NCBI RefSeq assembly: GCF_003852425.1 | Contig: NZ_QAJN01000002.1 | Location: 186,001 to 250,000, forward strand | Origin: Paucibacter sp. KBW04 | Lineage (GTDB): Bacteria > Pseudomonadota > Gammaproteobacteria > Burkholderiales > Burkholderiaceae_C | Direction of reading: 5' to 3' | Length of the DNA stretch: 64,000 nt | In this document: positions 9,612 to 52,827 of the stretch, one piece after another | Numbering within the stretch: position 1 is the stretch's first letter | Layout: the number at the start of each line of letters is the position of its first letter | The notes under the pieces: generated by a model | Databases searched by the model: none | What the model was told of the DNA's origin: nothing | The model's input: only the letters and a program-made list of their open reading frames with translations | Translations under genes and position numbers: made by a program

Positions 9612-9985
9612 TGTGAAGCAAGCCGATAGGCCGGATTCTGTGCAGCGCGGCCTTCTTGCGAAGACCGCGCCGTGACCGCCATTCCTCTTGGCCGGGCATC
9701 ACTGCCCGGCTCGGTGCCACCTACCCGCCAGCTCTGCGAGCCGCATCAATACTGGCCTACTTGGTGTTGCTGCGCGTAGAGATTGCCCGTTTCACCCGAC
9801 CCTGGAGGCTGCGCTTCCAGTCCCGCAAGGGCTTACACCCCGCACGTTTGATCGACTCGTCTCTGTTGCTCTAATCCTCGGCTCACGCCGGACAGCCGTT
9901 AGCTGCTACGCCGCTCTATGCAGTCCGGACCTTCCTCCAGTGCCATGTTTCCATGCTTGCACCAGCGGCGGTCTAGCTTGCTTCA
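9612..9985 (-). ncRNA. rnpB: RNase P RNA (M1 RNA, bacterial class A)
   Basis: The catalytic RNA of RNase P, which matures tRNA 5' ends. Helix P1 is formed by GAAGCAAGC (minus strand 9984-9976) pairing with GCTTGCTTC (9623-9615). Conserved core segments are present: GAGGAAGGTCCGGACT near the 5' end (CR I), AGAGCAACAGAGA in the middle, and near the 3' end CACAGAATCCGGCCTATCGG (CR V). The length of about 374 nt is normal. A GATAAT hexamer at 9998-9993 lies at the right distance for a -10 element just upstream of the 5' end. The ends are accurate to a few bases. Confidence 0.97.
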
Positions 9986-10018
9986 CGGCGCCATTATCGT
10001 CGATAAGATTTGCCCGCC

Positions 10019-10660
10019 ATGAATGCCTCCTTGTTTGATGACGAGCCCGCCGAGATGCCTCTCGCCCCCGGCGCCACCATGTTGCGCGGCTTCGCCCTGG
10101 CGCACAGCGCCGCCTTGCAAGCCGGTGTGGCAGCGGTGCTGGCGCAAGCGCCGCTGCGCCAGATGCTCACGCCGGGCGGCAAGCTGATGGCTGTGTGGAT
10201 GACGAACTGCGGGCCGCTGGGCTGGGTGTCGGACCGGCGCGGCTACCGCTACCAAGCCCAGGACCCCGTGAGCGGGCGACCCTGGCCCGCCCTGCCAGCA
10301 GCCTTTGCAGAACTGGCGCAGCAAGCCGCCGAACGGGCCGGCTTCCCGCGCTTTGAGCCAGACGCCTGCCTGATCAACCGCTACCTGCCCGGCACGCGCC
10401 TGAGCCTGCACCAAGACCGCGACGAGCAAGACTTCAGCCAGCCCATCGTCTCGGTCTCGCTAGGCTTGCCCGCCGTGTTCCTGTTCGGCGGCTTGAGTCG
10501 CGGCGACAAGACCGAGAGATTGGATCTGCAGCATGGCGACGTTTTGGTCTGGGGCGGCCCGGCCCGTCTGCGCTTTCATGGCGTTATGCCGCTGGCGGGT
10601 GGCCGGCACGAAGAGCTGGGCGAGCAGCGGATCAACCTGACTTTTCGCAAGGCTGGTTGA
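10019..10660 (+). CDS. alkB: DNA oxidative demethylase AlkB
   Basis: Fe(II)/2-oxoglutarate dioxygenase that removes 1-methyladenine and 3-methylcytosine from DNA. The 213-residue protein has the iron-binding LHQDRDE motif (HxD), the distal His in RLRFHGVMPL, and the 2-oxoglutarate-binding RINLTFRKAG tail. The N-terminal GATMLRGFAL and WMTNCGPLGWVSDRRGY segments also match AlkB. Start: ATG at 10019; a TTG three codons upstream (10010) is possible. It lies head-to-head with rnpB across about 30 bp, so its promoter would overlap the rnpB promoter region. No ada or alkA gene is nearby. Confidence 0.95.
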   Translation: MNASLFDDEPAEMPLAPGATMLRGFALAHSAALQAGVAAVLAQAPLRQMLTPGGKLMAVWMTNCGPLGWVSDRRGYRYQAQDPVSGRPWPALPAAFAELAQQAAERAGFPRFEPDACLINRYLPGTRLSLHQDRDEQDFSQPIVSVSLGLPAVFLFGGLSRGDKTERLDLQHGDVLVWGGPARLRFHGVMPLAGGRHEELGEQRINLTFRKAG

Positions 10661-11107
10661 AGCACTGCTACTCATCTGGCGATCAAACCACCAGGCCGAA
10701 AAACCAAGGAGAGATTTGCCACCGCCTTGCGACTGACTTCGCGCGGCACATCAGGCACGCCGAGGTGGGAGCCCGTTTTCTAAGCCGTCAACCAAGCCTG
10801 GGACTTCGGACTTTCGACCCACGGGAAGGAGGGAAGCATTCCTTAGTCGAAGATGCCGGCTCAGTGGCCGGATCCGAAAGGGATAAGGATTCGGCAGCAG
10901 GCTGATTGTGGCCGTTCGCGTCAGGTCGCTCTGCTGTCAGCTATCGCTGATTGCAGTCAGTCACCTGGCATGGTTTGTACGGCCAGTTTCTGTCCGTTGC
11001 GTCCTCCAAGCGCGGAATCTGCCAGACTGCCCGAAGAGGAACGCCAACGGTTGCATCGACCTAGGCATCCAGCGACCTCGCGTCGCTGAACAAATCAGGG
11101 ATGAAAT
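10661..11107 (+). other. Intergenic stretch without a recognisable gene
   Basis: 447 bp between alkB and the PHP-like/SMC-like ATPase gene. Open frames here are short and resemble nothing I recognise, and no tRNA, transposase or clear terminator is visible. The base composition is mixed and less biased than in the flanking housekeeping genes. It may be the left flank of a small inserted island, but I found no convincing direct repeat or integrase to support this. Confidence 0.5.
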
Positions 11108-13762
11108 ATGAATAATGAGTACACGTTCGCACGATTCTGGCGCTGTGCGCTACAGGTCAATCCTGTCGGCTACAACGGCACCTATAGGGGAGCCGACCAT
11201 GGGCTGGATGAGGGCGGCTACAACCAAGCCCTGCTTCAGAAGTGCCTTGAGCTGGGCATCAAAGTTGTAGGGTTAGCCGACCACGGCAGCGTGAGCAGCG
11301 TCGATGCTTTACGTCAGGTGTTACAGCTGCAAGGGATCGTGGTGTTTCCCGGCTTCGAGATCGCCTCGAACGACAAAACGCATTTCGTCTGTCTTTTCCC
11401 CGAGGACACCACGGTGCAGCAGCTTGATCGCTACCTTGGCAACCTCAAGCTGCATGACCCTACAGATGGCATCCGGCCTTCTCGGCTGAGCTCAGAAGAT
11501 CTGATTGAAGAAGTCGATCTACTTGGTGGGTTCATCTACGCTGCACATTGCACGCAGGACAGTGGCCTGCTGAAAAGCCGCCTGAACCACGTATGGAAGC
11601 ATCCCAAGCTGCGCGCGGCCCAGATTCCGGGGTCGATAGACGACCTCACGAGCATCGAGAGCGACTTCTATCGCAAGGTGTTCTTGAACAAGGACGAAAG
11701 CTACCGGCGTGAGCGCCCTGTGGCAGCGATCAATGCCAAGGATGTAGCCAAGCCTGATGACTTGGATCAGCCGAGCGCAACGTGCTTCATCAAGATGACA
11801 CGGCCCACTTTCTCAGCTTTCAAGGTGGCCTTCCTCGATCCAGGATCGCGTGTCCGGCTCAACTCGCAGCAGGCCCAAAGTCCGATTGGCAAGGTGGTAC
11901 GCATGACGGTAGCCGGTGGCTACCTTGATGGCGTCCGGGTGGATTTTTCCGACCATCTCAACACGGTGATCGGCGGCCGTGGAACGGGTAAGTCAACCTT
12001 GCTCGAATGCCTGCGCTTCGCCTTGAACTTGCCACCCAAAGGCAAACAGGCTCTGAAGCTCCACCAGGACATCATCAAGGAGAACCTTGGTCGCTCGGCC
12101 GGTCGGGTTGAGCTGACAGTGGTGTCCTCTGCCCAGAACGGCAAGCAATACACCATCTCGCGCCGTCATGGCGAGCTGCCGATGGTGCGTGAGATGGATG
12201 GCAATATCTCCACCCTACTCCCGCGCGACTTGCTGCCGGGTATCGACATTTACGGGCAGAACGAAATTTACGAGTTGGCCCAAGATGAAACCAGCCGCGT
12301 GCAGTTGCTGGATCGCTTTCTTCCTCAAGACGGGGAGTACGAGGCGAAGAGCGCCGACGTGCATAGGCGGTTGAAGGACAACCAACAGAAGCTCACGAAG
12401 TCCCTGACCGATCTTGATGAGCTGAATGCACAGGTGGAGCGCTTGCCCAAGCTGGAAGAGCAGCATCGCGGTTTTGATGAACTGGGGATAAAGGAGAAGC
12501 TGGCCAAGACCTCACTGATCGCACGCGAGCGAGAGATTTCCAAGACCGCTACTGATGGCGTACAGAGCTTTCGCAACGCGCTTTCAGACCTGCGTGACAG
12601 ATTGCCAGACCTTGACTTCTTCAACGATGAGGCTCTTCAGGGATTGCCTGACGCTGCACAGTTGCTTGCCATGCGCACAACGCTGGAGGGACTCAAGCAG
12701 GGATTCACTGACCATCTGACCGCCATGCAGGCCTTGGTTGATGACAGGGCAGGACAGTTCAGCAACCAGCATGACACATGGCAGCAGGCGATTAAGGCGC
12801 ACGATACTGAGTTGGAGAAGGCGCTGCGGACGTTGCCCGCCACCGCTGGAAAAAGCGGGCAGGAGATCGGTGTTGCTTATCAAAAGTTGATCGAGGAGAT
12901 TGAGCGCATCAAGCCCATGAAGTCGCGGGCAACGAATCACGAGTCCCAGCGCGACGCCTTGCTTCAGGAGCGACGCAACTTTTTGGCCGAACTGTCCGAT
13001 TTGCGTGGGCAACGCATACAGACGTTGCAAAGGGCCGCGAAGAAACTGAACAGGCGACTTGAGGGCAAGCTCAAGGTGGAGATCGTGCCGGAGGCTGACC
13101 GCACGCCCTTGATGACCTTCTTGCTGGCTTGCAAGCTGGACGGTGTTGGTGAAAAGCGGCTTGCGTTCATTGAGGAGGCTGAGACGATCAGCCCGCTGTC
13201 ACTGGCCAAGTCGATTCAGAAAGGATCTGCCGAGGTGCAACTCGATTGGGACGTCACGCAGATGGTGGCCGATGCACTCACCAAGCTCCAGTCTGCTCAA
13301 CTCATGGAAATGGAAGCCTTGGAGCTGGCGCATCGCGTGGACATCTTTTTGAATGTCGCGCACGGCCAAGCCGATCCGAAATTCCGGCCACTCAACAAGC
13401 TCTCTACTGGCCAGCAGTGCACGGCAATCCTGCACATGCTGCTGCTTGAGAGCGTCGATCCCCTTCTGATGGATCAGCCGGAGGACAACCTAGACAACGC
13501 CTTCATCGCAGATCGGATCGTCACCGAATTGAGGGAGGCAAAGACCAGTCGGCAGTTCTTGTTCGCAACACACAACGCGAACATCCCTGTGTTCGGCGAT
13601 GCCGAATGGATTGGCGTGTTCACAGCCGCTGAGAATCATGGATGTCTCGGGTTGGAAGCGCAAGGCTCAATAGACGTTCCTGTGATTCGGGATGAGGTGG
13701 CCAGGATTCTGGAAGGCGGGCGCGACGCCTTCATCCAGCGCAAAGAGAAGTACGAGTTCTAA
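11108..13762 (+). CDS. PHP-like domain plus SMC/ABC-type ATPase (TrlF-like)
   Basis: 884 residues. Residues 1-250 look like a PHP phosphoesterase domain: LADHGS (Asp58/His59), Glu84 and His92 in the PGFEIASNDKTH segment, His146 in AAHC. The usual HxH motif I, expected around residues 14-18 (CALQVNP), is replaced by Gln and Asn, and the final DxH is also lost. An SMC/ABC-like ATPase is split by a long coiled coil (about 400-670): Walker A GGRGTGKST (289-297), signature LSTGQQ (765-770), Walker B LLMDQPEDN (from 786) and H-loop ATHNAN. This matches TrlF-type AAA-like ATPases, some of which occur in defence islands. Two sampled lines in the gene are 57 and 60 percent G+C, lower than neighbouring genes. 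It is isolated, with non-coding flanks. A nucleic-acid sensing or anti-phage role is inference. Confidence 0.75.
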   Translation: MNNEYTFARFWRCALQVNPVGYNGTYRGADHGLDEGGYNQALLQKCLELGIKVVGLADHGSVSSVDALRQVLQLQGIVVFPGFEIASNDKTHFVCLFPEDTTVQQLDRYLGNLKLHDPTDGIRPSRLSSEDLIEEVDLLGGFIYAAHCTQDSGLLKSRLNHVWKHPKLRAAQIPGSIDDLTSIESDFYRKVFLNKDESYRRERPVAAINAKDVAKPDDLDQPSATCFIKMTRPTFSAFKVAFLDPGSRVRLNSQQAQSPIGKVVRMTVAGGYLDGVRVDFSDHLNTVIGGRGTGKSTLLECLRFALNLPPKGKQALKLHQDIIKENLGRSAGRVELTVVSSAQNGKQYTISRRHGELPMVREMDGNISTLLPRDLLPGIDIYGQNEIYELAQDETSRVQLLDRFLPQDGEYEAKSADVHRRLKDNQQKLTKSLTDLDELNAQVERLPKLEEQHRGFDELGIKEKLAKTSLIAREREISKTATDGVQSFRNALSDLRDRLPDLDFFNDEALQGLPDAAQLLAMRTTLEGLKQGFTDHLTAMQALVDDRAGQFSNQHDTWQQAIKAHDTELEKALRTLPATAGKSGQEIGVAYQKLIEEIERIKPMKSRATNHESQRDALLQERRNFLAELSDLRGQRIQTLQRAAKKLNRRLEGKLKVEIVPEADRTPLMTFLLACKLDGVGEKRLAFIEEAETISPLSLAKSIQKGSAEVQLDWDVTQMVADALTKLQSAQLMEMEALELAHRVDIFLNVAHGQADPKFRPLNKLSTGQQCTAILHMLLLESVDPLLMDQPEDNLDNAFIADRIVTELREAKTSRQFLFATHNANIPVFGDAEWIGVFTAAENHGCLGLEAQGSIDVPVIRDEVARILEGGRDAFIQRKEKYEF

Positions 13763-14113
13763 GGTCGTTTTGAAAAGCACCCCGAGAACTCCACCTCGGT
13801 GGGCATCTTTGGGGCCAATAGTGGAAATACAGCGACGTAAGTGCGACCCGCAGCTAGCGCAGCAGACGAGCCGTTCACCTATGCGATGCCAGCTCCAGGC
13901 GAATAGGAGCCGTTCGAATCGGAGAGGCGACCGGCTGGCTGCAATCTCCAAGAATCAACAGTCAAGGATGTCCGCAGCCCTTGCCGCCTATCACCCTGCC
14001 CCGGGCCCTTAACCAGGAGTCACCAGGCCTCCTGGCAAAATCCAAATGATCGGGGCGAGCTTGGCATGAGGGCAACGCTGAACAGGCCCCCCTTGAACAA
14101 TGGAGCAGCATCA
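13763..14113 (+). other. Intergenic stretch with a weak hairpin
   Basis: 351 bp between the ATPase gene and the cysteine-rich gene. A 7-bp stem (CCAGGAG/CTCCTGG) near 14011-14034 might slow transcription but has no T-run, so I do not call it a terminator. No gene is recognised. An in-frame ATG at 14066 would extend the downstream gene by 16 residues. Confidence 0.5.
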
Positions 14114-14554
14114 ATGGCACTGACAAAAAAGGGTGAGTTCTGGTACGGGACGACGTCCGGCGACACCCAAGCCGAGCTGCGCAGCTACAGCATCGCGAAT
14201 CGCCACGAGGCCGTCCGGTTTGCCGCGTCCAAATGCGAGTGCGGCTGCCGGACCTTTGCGCTGCAGACGGATGAAGACGCCGGCGTGGCCATCCGCACCT
14301 GCACCGACTGCGGGCAAGAACACCTGATGGGCGACAGCGCGGACTATGTTGATGGCGCCACGCCCGAGACGCACGAGTGCGTGTGCGAGAACGAGGTGTT
14401 CGAGCTGATGTCGGGCGTCTCCGTGGTCGAGGGCACACATGACGTGCGCTGGTACTACATCGCTTGCCACTGCGTGGAATGCAATCTGGTCGGGGTCTTC
14501 GCCGACTGGAAGTGTGAAGCGGGTGATGCGGCGAGCTTCCTCGCCAAGGTTTGA
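14114..14554 (+). CDS. Conserved cysteine-rich protein of unknown function
   Basis: 146 residues from the ATG at 14114, which has GGAG 8 nt upstream; the in-frame ATG at 14066 lacks support. The start MALTKKGEFWYG is followed by several cysteine pairs: CECGC, CTDCG, CVCENE and CHCVEC, suggesting two or more zinc ribbons. There is no signal peptide or TM. I have a general sense of similar conserved hypothetical proteins of about 145 residues in varied bacteria, but no function. It may belong to the same accessory segment as the ATPase gene upstream, though 350 bp apart and with higher G+C. Confidence 0.75.
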   Translation: MALTKKGEFWYGTTSGDTQAELRSYSIANRHEAVRFAASKCECGCRTFALQTDEDAGVAIRTCTDCGQEHLMGDSADYVDGATPETHECVCENEVFELMSGVSVVEGTHDVRWYYIACHCVECNLVGVFADWKCEAGDAASFLAKV

Positions 14555-38782: not shown

Positions 38783-39829
38783 TCAGGCTGAAGCTCGCGG
38801 CGGCTCAGGCAAGGCAGAGCCGAACAACACGCCCCGATAGAACTTCCGGCCGCTTTGCCGGGCCGCAGCCCGCGCCGTCTCCCGCCGCCCGACCACCGCG
38901 CCGCGAAAACTGAACTGGCTTTGCAACTGCGCCCGAAAGCGCTCCGGCTCCAAGGCCAGGCGTTCCAGAATGGCGGGCGTGTCGGCGGACACAAGCCCGC
39001 GCTTACCCCTCCGCTCAATGCGGGCGGCCCAGTCCAGCAGTTCCAGATAGTCTTGCAGCTGATAGGGAAGCTGCTTGGCCGAGGGCTTGGCTTTGGCGAG
39101 ACCCTCGGGCATGAACGGCATCAGGCGCGGCGGGGGTGAAGAGGGTTCGCCTTCCGTCTTGGCAGGCGTGGGGGCCGACTTCTCGGCCTGCAACAAGGCC
39201 TTGACGCGCTGCTCAATCGAGGTGAACTCGCTGGCCTCCGGCGTCGGCGCCATGCCCGCGCGCACCGGGTTCAGGTCCACATAAGCCATGCAGGCCAGCA
39301 AACCCACCTCGTCCAGCAAGGCTTGGCTGCGGAAGCGCCCTTCCCAGAAGCGGCCCGTACAGCCATCTTCCGCATTGGCCTGGCGCGCCAGCTTCTCGTT
39401 GAAGACCCGCATAAACCAAGACAGGCTGCACAGCCGTTCACGCCAGACCTGCAACATCTTTTGCGCCGCCGCGCGCTCGGCCGCCGTGCCGCATTGGCCC
39501 TGCAAATAGCGCGTGACCAATACATGCTGGCCAAAAAAGAGTTGCCAGCGCCGCGCCACTTCTTTTTCTGACCACTGGGCCGCACTTTGTGGATTCACCC
39601 GCACAACCAGGTGGTAATGATTGGACATCACGGCGTAGGCGGCCACATCAATTGCAAAGCCTGCTGCCAAGCGAGCCAGCAAATCCACCACCCAGGCCTT
39701 GCGGTGGCCGTAGTCGCGCTGGTTGTAGGCGTCCACCCCACACAAGAAAGCACGCCGCACGCAGCGACCCACCACGTGGTAATAGGGGGTTAGCGTCAGA
39801 TCAACCAAGGTTTGGCGAGCGCGAGGCAT
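38783..39829 (-). CDS. REP-associated tyrosine transposase-like protein (RAYT, Y1 family)
   Basis: 348 residues. The N-terminal ~200 residues match transposase IS200-like/RAYT proteins: YYHVVGRCVRRAFLCG, the HUH motif in NHYHLVVRV, CTGRFWEGRFRSQALLD and AYVDLNPVRAGMA. The C-terminal region is longer than in short RAYTs and rich in Pro, Ala and Arg. RAYTs are domesticated single-copy relatives of IS200 transposases linked to REP palindromes. No flanking REP pair was identified, but the last ~35 bp recur at 39932-39965, upstream of its start, as part of what looks like the tail of a second copy. Confidence 0.9.
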   Translation of the reverse strand: MPRARQTLVDLTLTPYYHVVGRCVRRAFLCGVDAYNQRDYGHRKAWVVDLLARLAAGFAIDVAAYAVMSNHYHLVVRVNPQSAAQWSEKEVARRWQLFFGQHVLVTRYLQGQCGTAAERAAAQKMLQVWRERLCSLSWFMRVFNEKLARQANAEDGCTGRFWEGRFRSQALLDEVGLLACMAYVDLNPVRAGMAPTPEASEFTSIEQRVKALLQAEKSAPTPAKTEGEPSSPPPRLMPFMPEGLAKAKPSAKQLPYQLQDYLELLDWAARIERRGKRGLVSADTPAILERLALEPERFRAQLQSQFSFRGAVVGRRETARAAARQSGRKFYRGVLFGSALPEPPRASA

Positions 39830-52155: not shown

Positions 52156-52827
52156 TCAGGGCTTGTTGCCCGTGGGGAAGGGCCATGCAGCTTGCGGGCT
52201 CAGTGCCGTCTTGGCAGCGGGCGCGGCAGCAGCGGGCTTGGCAGCCGGCTTCTTGGCAGCGGGAGCTGCCTTCTTCACCGGAGGCTTGACGGGCGCGGCA
52301 TCCTTCTTGGCAGGCGCAGCAGCAGCCTTCTTGACCGGCGGCTTGACAGGCGCAGCGGCCTTCTTCACGGGAGGCTTGACGGGTGCAGCAGCCTTCTTGG
52401 CAGGAGCAGCAGCCTTCTTCGCGGGTGCAGCGGCCTTCTTGGCAGGAGCAGCAGCCTTCTTCGCGGGTGCAGCGGCCTTCTTAGCAGGAGCAGCAGCCTT
52501 CTTCGCGGGCGCAGCAGCCTTCTTGGCAGGAGCAGCAGCCTTCTTCGCAGGTGCAGCGGCCTTCTTCGCAGGAGCAGCAGCCTTCTTCGCGGGTGCAGCG
52601 GCCTTCTTAGCAGGAGCGGCAGCCTTCTTCGCAGGTGCAGCGGCCTTCTTAGCAGGAGCAGCAGCCTTCTTTGCAGGTGCAGCGGCCTTCTTGGCGGGAG
52701 CAGCAGCCTTCTTAGCAGGCGCAGCGGCCTTCTTCACGGGAGCAGCAGCGACCTTCTTTGCTGGTGCAGCAGCCTTCTTTGCGGGAGCGGCGGCCTTCTT
52801 AGCCGGTGCCTTCTTTGCAGTTGCCAT
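52156..52827 (-). CDS. Histone H1-like DNA-binding protein with heptad repeats
   Basis: 223 residues, made mostly of Lys, Ala and Pro. After MATAKKAPAKK come about twenty heptads of the form AAAPAKK, then VKPPVKK variants, and a conserved betaproteobacterial tail SPQAAWPFPTGNKP. Similar to eukaryotic H1 tails and to HctB/AlgP-like proteins, it should bind DNA by charge and help nucleoid packing. The ATG is preceded by AAGGAGAAC. The repeat number is likely to vary between strains through slippage. The 248 bp upstream, before the hairpin repeats, hold no other gene. Confidence 0.93.
   Translation of the reverse strand: MATAKKAPAKKAAAPAKKAAAPAKKVAAAPVKKAAAPAKKAAAPAKKAAAPAKKAAAPAKKAAAPAKKAAAPAKKAAAPAKKAAAPAKKAAAPAKKAAAPAKKAAAPAKKAAAPAKKAAAPAKKAAAPAKKAAAPAKKAAAPAKKAAAPVKPPVKKAAAPVKPPVKKAAAAPAKKDAAPVKPPVKKAAPAAKKPAAKPAAAAPAAKTALSPQAAWPFPTGNKP
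52382..52815 (-). repeat. 21-bp tandem coding repeat with 42-bp higher-order period
   Basis: Heptad codons repeat every 21 bp. Alternating GCGGCC and GCAGCC versions, and alternating GCAGGA and GCGGGT versions, give an approximate 42-bp pattern, suggesting expansion by pairs of heptads. It lies wholly inside the histone-like gene. Confidence 0.85.

What the first reader, a model, noticed from the sequence alone, without database searches (positions are those of the whole stretch)
10661..14554. Small island with a PHP-degenerate SMC-like ATPase, candidate conflict system
The 884-residue protein joins a PHP-like domain that lacks the motif I metal ligands (Gln/Asn in place of His/His) and the last DxH, to an SMC-type ATPase with a long coiled coil and intact Walker A, signature and Walker B. 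The gene sits alone between non-coding flanks and has lower G+C than the neighbours. A related cysteine-rich gene lies 350 bp on. The architecture resembles TrlF-type and other coiled-coil ATPases found in defence islands; the degenerate PHP suggests a sensor rather than a nuclease.
Basis: partly seen in the sequence, partly recalled or inferred. Interest (0 to 1): 0.6.

Follow-up and report, generated by a model that had tools for sequence, protein, structure and literature searches.

The report
Mobile TrlF-type ATPase, inactive PHP domain
A single horizontally acquired bacterial gene makes a coiled-coil ATPase of the known TrlF family whose metal-enzyme domain has lost key residues throughout its branch; close copies travel beside very different anti-virus systems, so it is probably a general defence add-on, here without a partner.

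Summary
The ORF 11108-13762 (+, 884 aa) is real and is a full-length member of the known TrlF family (NCBIfam NF045780, 564.8 bits, cut-off 350). Its N-terminal domain is predicted to have a PHP fold. Motif I HxH is Q16xN18; the last DxH keeps D212 but loses its His. This marks the whole branch: 33 of 33 tree rows at least 36% identical have QxN, while 29 of 30 rows at most 27% identical have HxH. The gene is mobile: none of 17 congeners has a full-length copy, yet 88-92% copies occur in alpha-, beta- and gammaproteobacteria, several on plasmids, and shared DNA spans little more than the gene. In the nearest subclade trlF follows Type IIG, Type II (XhoI), Type III or Type ISP restriction genes, or Shango genes; some copies lack such neighbours. 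About half of the relatives that could be read (35 of 67) are followed by TrlG, a Schlafen-type protein; the window's subclade lacks it. Best reading: an autonomous, partner-agnostic defence ATPase with a non-catalytic PHP module, here an orphan under purifying selection. Anti-phage activity is inferred, not shown. The cysteine-rich neighbour is an unrelated genus gene.

The parts
11108..13762 (+). trlF: 884-aa TrlF-family PHP + SMC/Rad50-type ATPase
   Evidence: NF045780 564.8 bits, cut-off 350, residues 8-883 on model 3-944; 92% identical to a copy in another genus of the family
11108..11857 (+). PHP-fold domain (about residues 1-250), motif I QxN (Q16, N18), retained D58 H59 E84 H92 H147 D212, last His lost
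   Evidence: AF2 model pLDDT 78.6, pTM 0.82; Foldseek and VIA-align hits to EndoQ, RNase AM, TM0559; alignments
11972..11998 (+). Walker A GGRGTGKST (residues 289-297)
   Evidence: G289-K295 invariant in the 15-sequence alignment
12308..13297 (+). coiled-coil region (about residues 401-730, my division), the part with the most amino-acid change in most pairs
   Evidence: long helices in a weak model; region dN
13400..13582 (+). ABC signature LSTGQQ, Walker B LLMDQPED, H-loop ATHNAN
   Evidence: conserved block
11086..11107 (+). leader of up to 22 bp with ribosome-binding-like AAATCAGGGA shared with relatives: upstream edge of the shared DNA
10661..11085 (.). unshared upstream flank; a query of 10661-11107 finds no match in 58 related genomes or in 72,556 plasmids

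Best explanation
This is a laterally acquired trlF gene standing alone. Its product is an SMC/Rad50-type ATPase, presumably a dimer, with a coiled coil and an N-terminal PHP-fold domain that is no longer a metal phosphoesterase. Most likely it is an autonomous accessory of host defence that can be added to almost any restriction-type system. The ATPase and coiled coil recognise an infection cue (for example DNA ends or a disabled restriction enzyme). The PHP pocket serves as a structural or ligand-binding module. The output is either a partner (ancestrally the Schlafen-type TrlG) or ATP-driven clamping by TrlF itself. Shown here: family membership, motif loss across the branch, mobility, linkage of relatives to diverse restriction/BREX/Shango genes and to TrlG, purifying selection. 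Inferred: dimerisation, loss of catalysis, the cue, the output, and any anti-phage effect.
For: Family: NF045780 at 564.8 bits against 350. Branch-wide QxN: 33 of 33 rows at least 36% identical; 29 of 30 distant rows HxH, the other (L090) QxH; QxN rows are one side of a branch with SH-aLRT 99. Mobility: 0 of 17 congeners with a full-length copy, 1 of 17 other genera of the family sampled; 88-92% copies in Chitinibacter, Chitiniphilus, Xanthomonas, Comamonas and Acetobacter; DNA similarity from about 11086 to 13762 only. Partner swapping among copies 78-95% identical: Type IIG (L007, L010, L017, L030, L038), Eco57I-type methylase + XhoI endonuclease (L011), Type III (L013), Type ISP (L015), SngABC (L025). 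More distant relatives in Type I and BREX loci, beside Type III and DUF499/DUF1156 genes. Reference proteins within 6 kb in 20 of 35 QxN-branch loci, window included (14 of 35 if a locus's own proteins are left out), against 0 of 20 control stretches. TrlG follows in 18 of 37 QxN and 17 of 30 HxH loci with enough downstream sequence. The IIG enzyme (90-99.8% identical) also occurs without trlF in 4 of 4 plasmid stretches opened (tblastn check with positive control), so the two are separable. dN/dS to L030 is 0.13.
Against: No experiment on this clade is known to me. The only published phenotype found near it is temperature restriction, not phage defence: in Photorhabdus the mutations hit trlG, none hit trlF, and the authors note TrlF may play no role (PMC7554251, passages). 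15 of 35 loci, the window among them, showed no reference restriction gene; some TrlF-TrlG pairs sit among what look by eye like housekeeping genes (L026, L106, L143). The window copy has no partner, and its dN/dS (0.13-0.14 to four relatives) is the highest of the pairs computed, against 0.05-0.10 for eight pairs without it, so it may be under weaker constraint; L031, which also lacks a restriction neighbour, does not show this (0.059). PHP loss does not predict the partner (18/37 against 17/30), so no functional reading follows from the degeneracy alone. Controls were 20 hand-chosen chromosomal stretches, not matched for plasmids or islands; the reference proteins came mostly from the loci under test; several loci carry near-identical cassettes.
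Confidence: 0.55

Rival explanations
1. The gene is a decaying orphan: it arrived as the tail of a restriction cassette, lost its partner and is on its way out.
For: No reference partner within 6 kb, no TrlG found in the genome (without a positive control), only a 26% methylase hit elsewhere; highest dN/dS of the pairs computed; broken or truncated copies occur (L015, L020, L021, L024, L033 and three Xanthomonas phaseoli plasmids).
Against: Intact frame after about 8% protein divergence from the nearest copies, dN/dS 0.13 with all ATPase motifs intact; intact copies without a reference restriction gene within 6 kb recur (L012, L014, L022, L031, L032, L060, L061, L064), and L031 shows no raised dN/dS.
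Confidence: 0.25
2. TrlF is chiefly a DNA-break or chromosome-maintenance ATPase (SbcC/Rad50-like repair helper) that protects hosts from restriction damage rather than attacking invaders.
For: SMC_N/AAA_23/Rad50-type ATPase matches; some records carry a 'double-strand break repair' GO tag; lies beside many kinds of DNA-cutting system.
Against: Patchy and mobile (28 of 397 genomes over the cut-off, own included); lies in phage and satellite-like cargo positions; about half of the loci pair it with a Schlafen-type protein.
Confidence: 0.15
3. TrlF works only as half of a TrlF-TrlG toxin-antitoxin-like pair and has no role alone.
For: TrlG follows in 35 of 67 loci across both branches; TrlG carries the growth phenotype in Photorhabdus (PMC7554251, passages).
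Against: 19 of 37 QxN loci and 13 of 30 HxH loci with enough downstream sequence lack a TrlG match, including every readable member of the window's subclade, yet pairs in that subclade show dN/dS of 0.05-0.14.
Confidence: 0.05

Closest known systems
TrlF family AAA-like ATPase (NCBIfam NF045780; trlF is a gene of the Photorhabdus Temperature Restricting Locus)
   Same: Full-length match over the curated cut-off; same PHP + ATPase layout
   Different: No TrlG beside it; not examined whether the Photorhabdus protein is of the QxN branch; that the NCBI name derives from this locus is inferred
Ppl anti-phage protein (NCBIfam NF042955, PADLOC PDLC02208)
   Same: PHP + SMC-type ATPase architecture (recalled); 169 and 121.7 bits
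   Different: Far under the Ppl cut-off (1000 bits); state of the Ppl PHP site not examined here
ABC-ATPase-anchored modules linked to restriction/BREX (PARIS AriA, Gabija GajA)
   Same: ATPase modules found beside BREX-type loci (PMC12839542, passages); weak ATPase-only hits here (AriA 32.5, GajA 26.5 bits)
   Different: Those are OLD-type ATPases with TOPRIM partners; here PHP-fused and paired, if at all, with a Schlafen-type protein
PHP domain of E. coli DNA polymerase III alpha (degenerate, structural; recalled)
   Same: Same fold (4jom Z 10.2, rmsd 4.2; 2hnh Z 10.2, rmsd 4.1)
   Different: Attached to a polymerase; which ligands it lost was not compared here

Membership tests
TrlF family (NF045780) | whole-protein score over the curated cut-off of 350 bits | tested here: met
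   564.8 bits, model 3-944 of 944
TrlF family (NF045780) | N-terminal PHP fold plus C-terminal ABC-type ATPase with coiled coil | tested here: met
   (the full-length model is weak, pLDDT 65)
Temperature Restricting Locus operon (trlR-trlF-trlG) | TrlG (AlbA_2 + HATPase_c_4) adjacent | tested here: not met
   tblastn of two TrlG proteins found none in the window; none in the own genome (no positive control)
Ppl anti-phage system | score over the NCBIfam cut-off of 1000 bits | tested here: not met
   169 bits
Spaf_1101 family | score over the cut-off of 475 bits | tested here: not met
   209.7 bits
Active PHP phosphoesterases | motif I HxH metal ligands | tested here: not met
   Q16, N18 in the window protein and QxN in 33 of 33 branch rows
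Active PHP phosphoesterases | metal-dependent phosphoesterase activity | not testable with these tools
   needs purified protein
Anti-phage defence system | reduces phage plating when expressed | not testable with these tools
   needs a plating assay
Anti-phage defence system | relatives enriched beside defence genes | tested here: inconclusive
   20 of 35 loci against 0 of 20 controls, but controls unmatched and loci partly related; the window copy itself has none

The most novel reading that the evidence does not exclude
The QxN branch of TrlF is a partner-agnostic guardian of restriction: one mobile ATPase that plugs into Type I, IIG, II, III, ISP, BREX and Shango loci, senses a cue common to all of them (enzyme inhibition or cleavage products), and reads it through a PHP pocket converted from catalysis to ligand binding. 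It would be an uncharacterised backup defence layer.
Probability: 0.25. Interest if true: 0.65.

Novelty: new member of a known kind. Interest (0 to 1): 0.4.

Why it matters
The gene itself is an ordinary TrlF member. What may matter is the branch: an ATPase that stays 78-95% identical to this one while it stands behind unrelated restriction enzymes implies a shared signal or task that no single restriction enzyme explains, and its PHP loss fixes which residues to test. The searches of the held library listed no paper that I recognised as describing this pairing; the pYR3 plasmid case in PMC7554251 (Type I M-subunit genes between trl genes, read in section 9) is a partial precedent. Most subscription papers are not in that library, and a key classification of ABC ATPases could not be read.

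Tried and rejected
Rejected: that losing the PHP site makes TrlF depend on TrlG (18 of 37 QxN against 17 of 30 HxH loci). Rejected: cysteine-rich gene as partner. Rejected: an island bounded by repeats (no direct repeats; three inverted pairs without a boundary pattern). RNA and promoter scans of the flanks gave nothing firm: one weak Rfam match in the upstream flank under its gathering score, one promoter-like site against 0.8 expected, four terminator-like sites against 3.5. Viral-contig scan empty. Full-length AF2 model weak (pLDDT 65), so only the PHP model was searched. The PDB sequence search with the PHP profile gave no hit better than E 0.37; the one PHP protein listed had E 0.92. misread loci on the minus strand and was redone. 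Rows not in the tree: L019, L020, L033 (truncated or frameshifted) and L095, L096 (no N-terminus) were dropped; L015, L017, L021, L023, L024, L027, L028 and L029 were never entered. In one search six of 43 QxN-branch loci had under 1 kb downstream and were not counted; some counted loci are near copies (L036 and L066, L063 and L084). Photorhabdus TrlF itself was not examined; a search that might have listed a Yersinia plasmid copy did not.
Full report
What is there. The window holds one intact 884-codon gene at 11108-13762 on the + strand, with the lowest G+C of the window (0.567 against a mean of 0.646). NCBIfam places it in the TrlF family (NF045780) at 564.8 bits, cut-off 350; the Ppl and Spaf_1101 models score 169 (cut-off 1000) and 209.7 (cut-off 475). 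Pfam sees the ATPase (AAA_21, AAA_23, over their cut-offs) and only a sub-threshold PHP hit.

The PHP domain. A model of residues 1-264 from 16 sequences has pLDDT 78.6 and pTM 0.82. Its best structural matches are PHP enzymes: EndoQ (Z 17.4, rmsd 3.1, 213 aligned), TM0559 (Z 15.5, 2.9, 186), RNase AM (Z 12.8, 3.4, 185), and DNA polymerase III alpha (2hnh, Z 10.2, 4.1, 204). Motif I reads CALQVN instead of DLHxH; D58, H59, E84, H92, H147 and D212 remain and the last His is lost. The assignment of these as metal ligands is recalled from PHP structures, not measured here.

The loss is old. I compared 63 family proteins: 33 at least 36% identical to the window protein (itself included) and 30 at most 27%. 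All 33 close rows have QxN; 29 of 30 distant rows have HxH and one (L090) has QxH. Several distant rows have lost the final His as well (for example L063, L088, L091). In the tree the QxN rows form one side of a branch with SH-aLRT 99 (quick method with long-branch warnings). They include Staphylococcus and Lactiplantibacillus plasmid proteins at 37-38% identity.

Mobility. A full-length relative occurs in 0 of 17 congeners (one has a 122-residue partial match) and in 1 of 17 other genera of the family sampled; in the order sample 5 of 399 genomes including our own; in the class sample 8 of 369 including our own. Over the family cut-off the phylum sample gave 28 of 397, own included. Yet copies 88-92% identical lie in Chitinibacter, Chitiniphilus, Comamonas, Xanthomonas and Acetobacter, that is in beta-, gamma- and alphaproteobacteria by their records. 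DNA similarity begins at most 22 bp before the ATG (11086) and ends at the stop at 13762 or within 5 bases of it. A query of the 447 bp upstream of the gene matches none of 58 related genomes and no plasmid. In one congener (G012) the same flanks, alkB on one side and a gene I read as CoxG-like on the other, enclose two other ORFs (386 and 232 aa), so this is a variable slot.

Company of relatives. In the nearest subclade trlF follows: a Type IIG enzyme behind a recombinase (serine-type by matches under their cut-offs) in L007, L010, L017, L030 and L038 (PADLOC 796.8 bits for L030); an Eco57I-type methylase plus XhoI endonuclease (L011); Type III methylase and helicase (L013); a Type ISP gene that looks broken (L015); and three genes that PADLOC names SngABC, the Shango system by my recall (L025). 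L037 has a fragment of a Type ISP gene. It lies between a replication gene and a Tn3 transposase on a Xanthomonas plasmid (L031) and beside transposition genes on an Acetobacter plasmid (L032). More distant relatives sit in Type I loci, BREX loci, next to Type III, beside DUF499/DUF1156 genes on an archaeal plasmid, in a P2-like phage between genes A and Q and, broken in two, in a Vibrio phage. Using 25 reference proteins taken mostly from these loci, 20 of 35 QxN-branch loci (the window counted among the 35) had one within 6 kb, or 14 of 35 after leaving out a locus's own proteins; 0 of 20 control stretches did; the window did not. The controls were hand-chosen chromosomal stretches from seven genomes, some loci had less than 6 kb on a side, and some of the 35 are near copies, so the contrast is indicative only.

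TrlG. Where at least 1 kb downstream could be read, a TrlG-like protein (Schlafen AlbA_2 plus HATPase_c_4) was found with trlF in 18 of 37 QxN and 17 of 30 HxH loci, within 80 bases of its end; in L018 the TrlG gene is interrupted. The pair is therefore probably older than the PHP loss, and the loss does not go with having or lacking it. In the 16-row fork of the tree that holds the window (support 94), all 12 relatives that could be read lack TrlG, as do L015 and L033, which were not in the tree. A search of the own genome found none (no positive control). The only phenotype I found comes from Photorhabdus, where trlG mutations let the strain grow at 36 C and no trlF mutation was found (PMC7554251: abstract, passages and section 9 read). 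A 2026 BREX survey counts Schlafen RNases with a small histidine-kinase domain beside BREX-type loci in at least 1017 taxa and does not contain the words PHP or TrlF in its main text (PMC12839542, passages); that these include TrlG is my inference.

Dependence. The IIG enzyme also occurs at 90-99.8% identity on plasmids without trlF (4 of 4 stretches opened; no trlF match by tblastn in any of them, with L030 as positive control), and trlF occurs without it. The two are separable. Nei-Gojobori dN/dS of the window copy is 0.13-0.14 to four relatives, against 0.05-0.10 for eight pairs without it: still purifying, but looser in the window lineage. L031, also without a restriction neighbour, is not raised (0.059), so looseness cannot be put down simply to being alone.

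How it probably works. An SMC/Rad50-type ATPase with roughly 240-330 residues of coiled coil, presumably dimeric, senses an infection cue; the PHP module, presumably no longer an enzyme, acts as scaffold or ligand pocket, as recalled for polymerase III alpha; the output is TrlG where present, otherwise a neighbouring system or TrlF itself. Only the sequence, predicted fold, mobility and linkage parts are shown. Verdict: a new member of a known family, ordinary at this locus, of interest for the partner-swapping branch to which it belongs.

Noticed in passing
window 14066-14554: Cysteine-rich 162-aa protein with CxC/CxxC pairs and no family hit over a cut-off; a genus gene (full or nearly full DNA match in 12 of 17 congeners).
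   Followed up: partly
window 9900-9984 (-): Partial match to RNase P RNA, cut by the edge of the stretch scanned, just upstream of alkB (10010-10660).
   Followed up: no
L007, L010, L037 codons 101-250 of trlF against L030: Nucleotide identity falls to 0.75-0.82 inside the PHP part while the gene after codon 250 is 0.85-0.99 identical: a sign of recombination in the N-terminal third.
   Followed up: partly
L170, L171 (Raoultella and Aeromonas plasmids): The Type IIG enzyme at 99.7-99.8% identity without trlF, followed by an AAA ATPase and a CopG-type gene.
   Followed up: partly
L065 4989-7607 (Yersinia phage vB_YenM_42.18): HxH-type TrlF relative between genes A and Q of a P2-like phage, annotated as chromosome partition protein.
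   Followed up: no
window 38783-39829 (-): 348-aa protein resembling REP-associated tyrosine transposases (MSNHYHLVV motif; recalled, not searched; ORF).
   Followed up: no
window 52156-52827 (-): 223-aa lysine/alanine/proline repeat protein (AKKAAAP units), histone-H1-like by eye.
   Followed up: no
G012:C3:828012-828380 (L005, L039): A congener has a 122-residue, 38% identical match to the ATPase C-terminus inside a 1030-codon frame; not identified.
   Followed up: no
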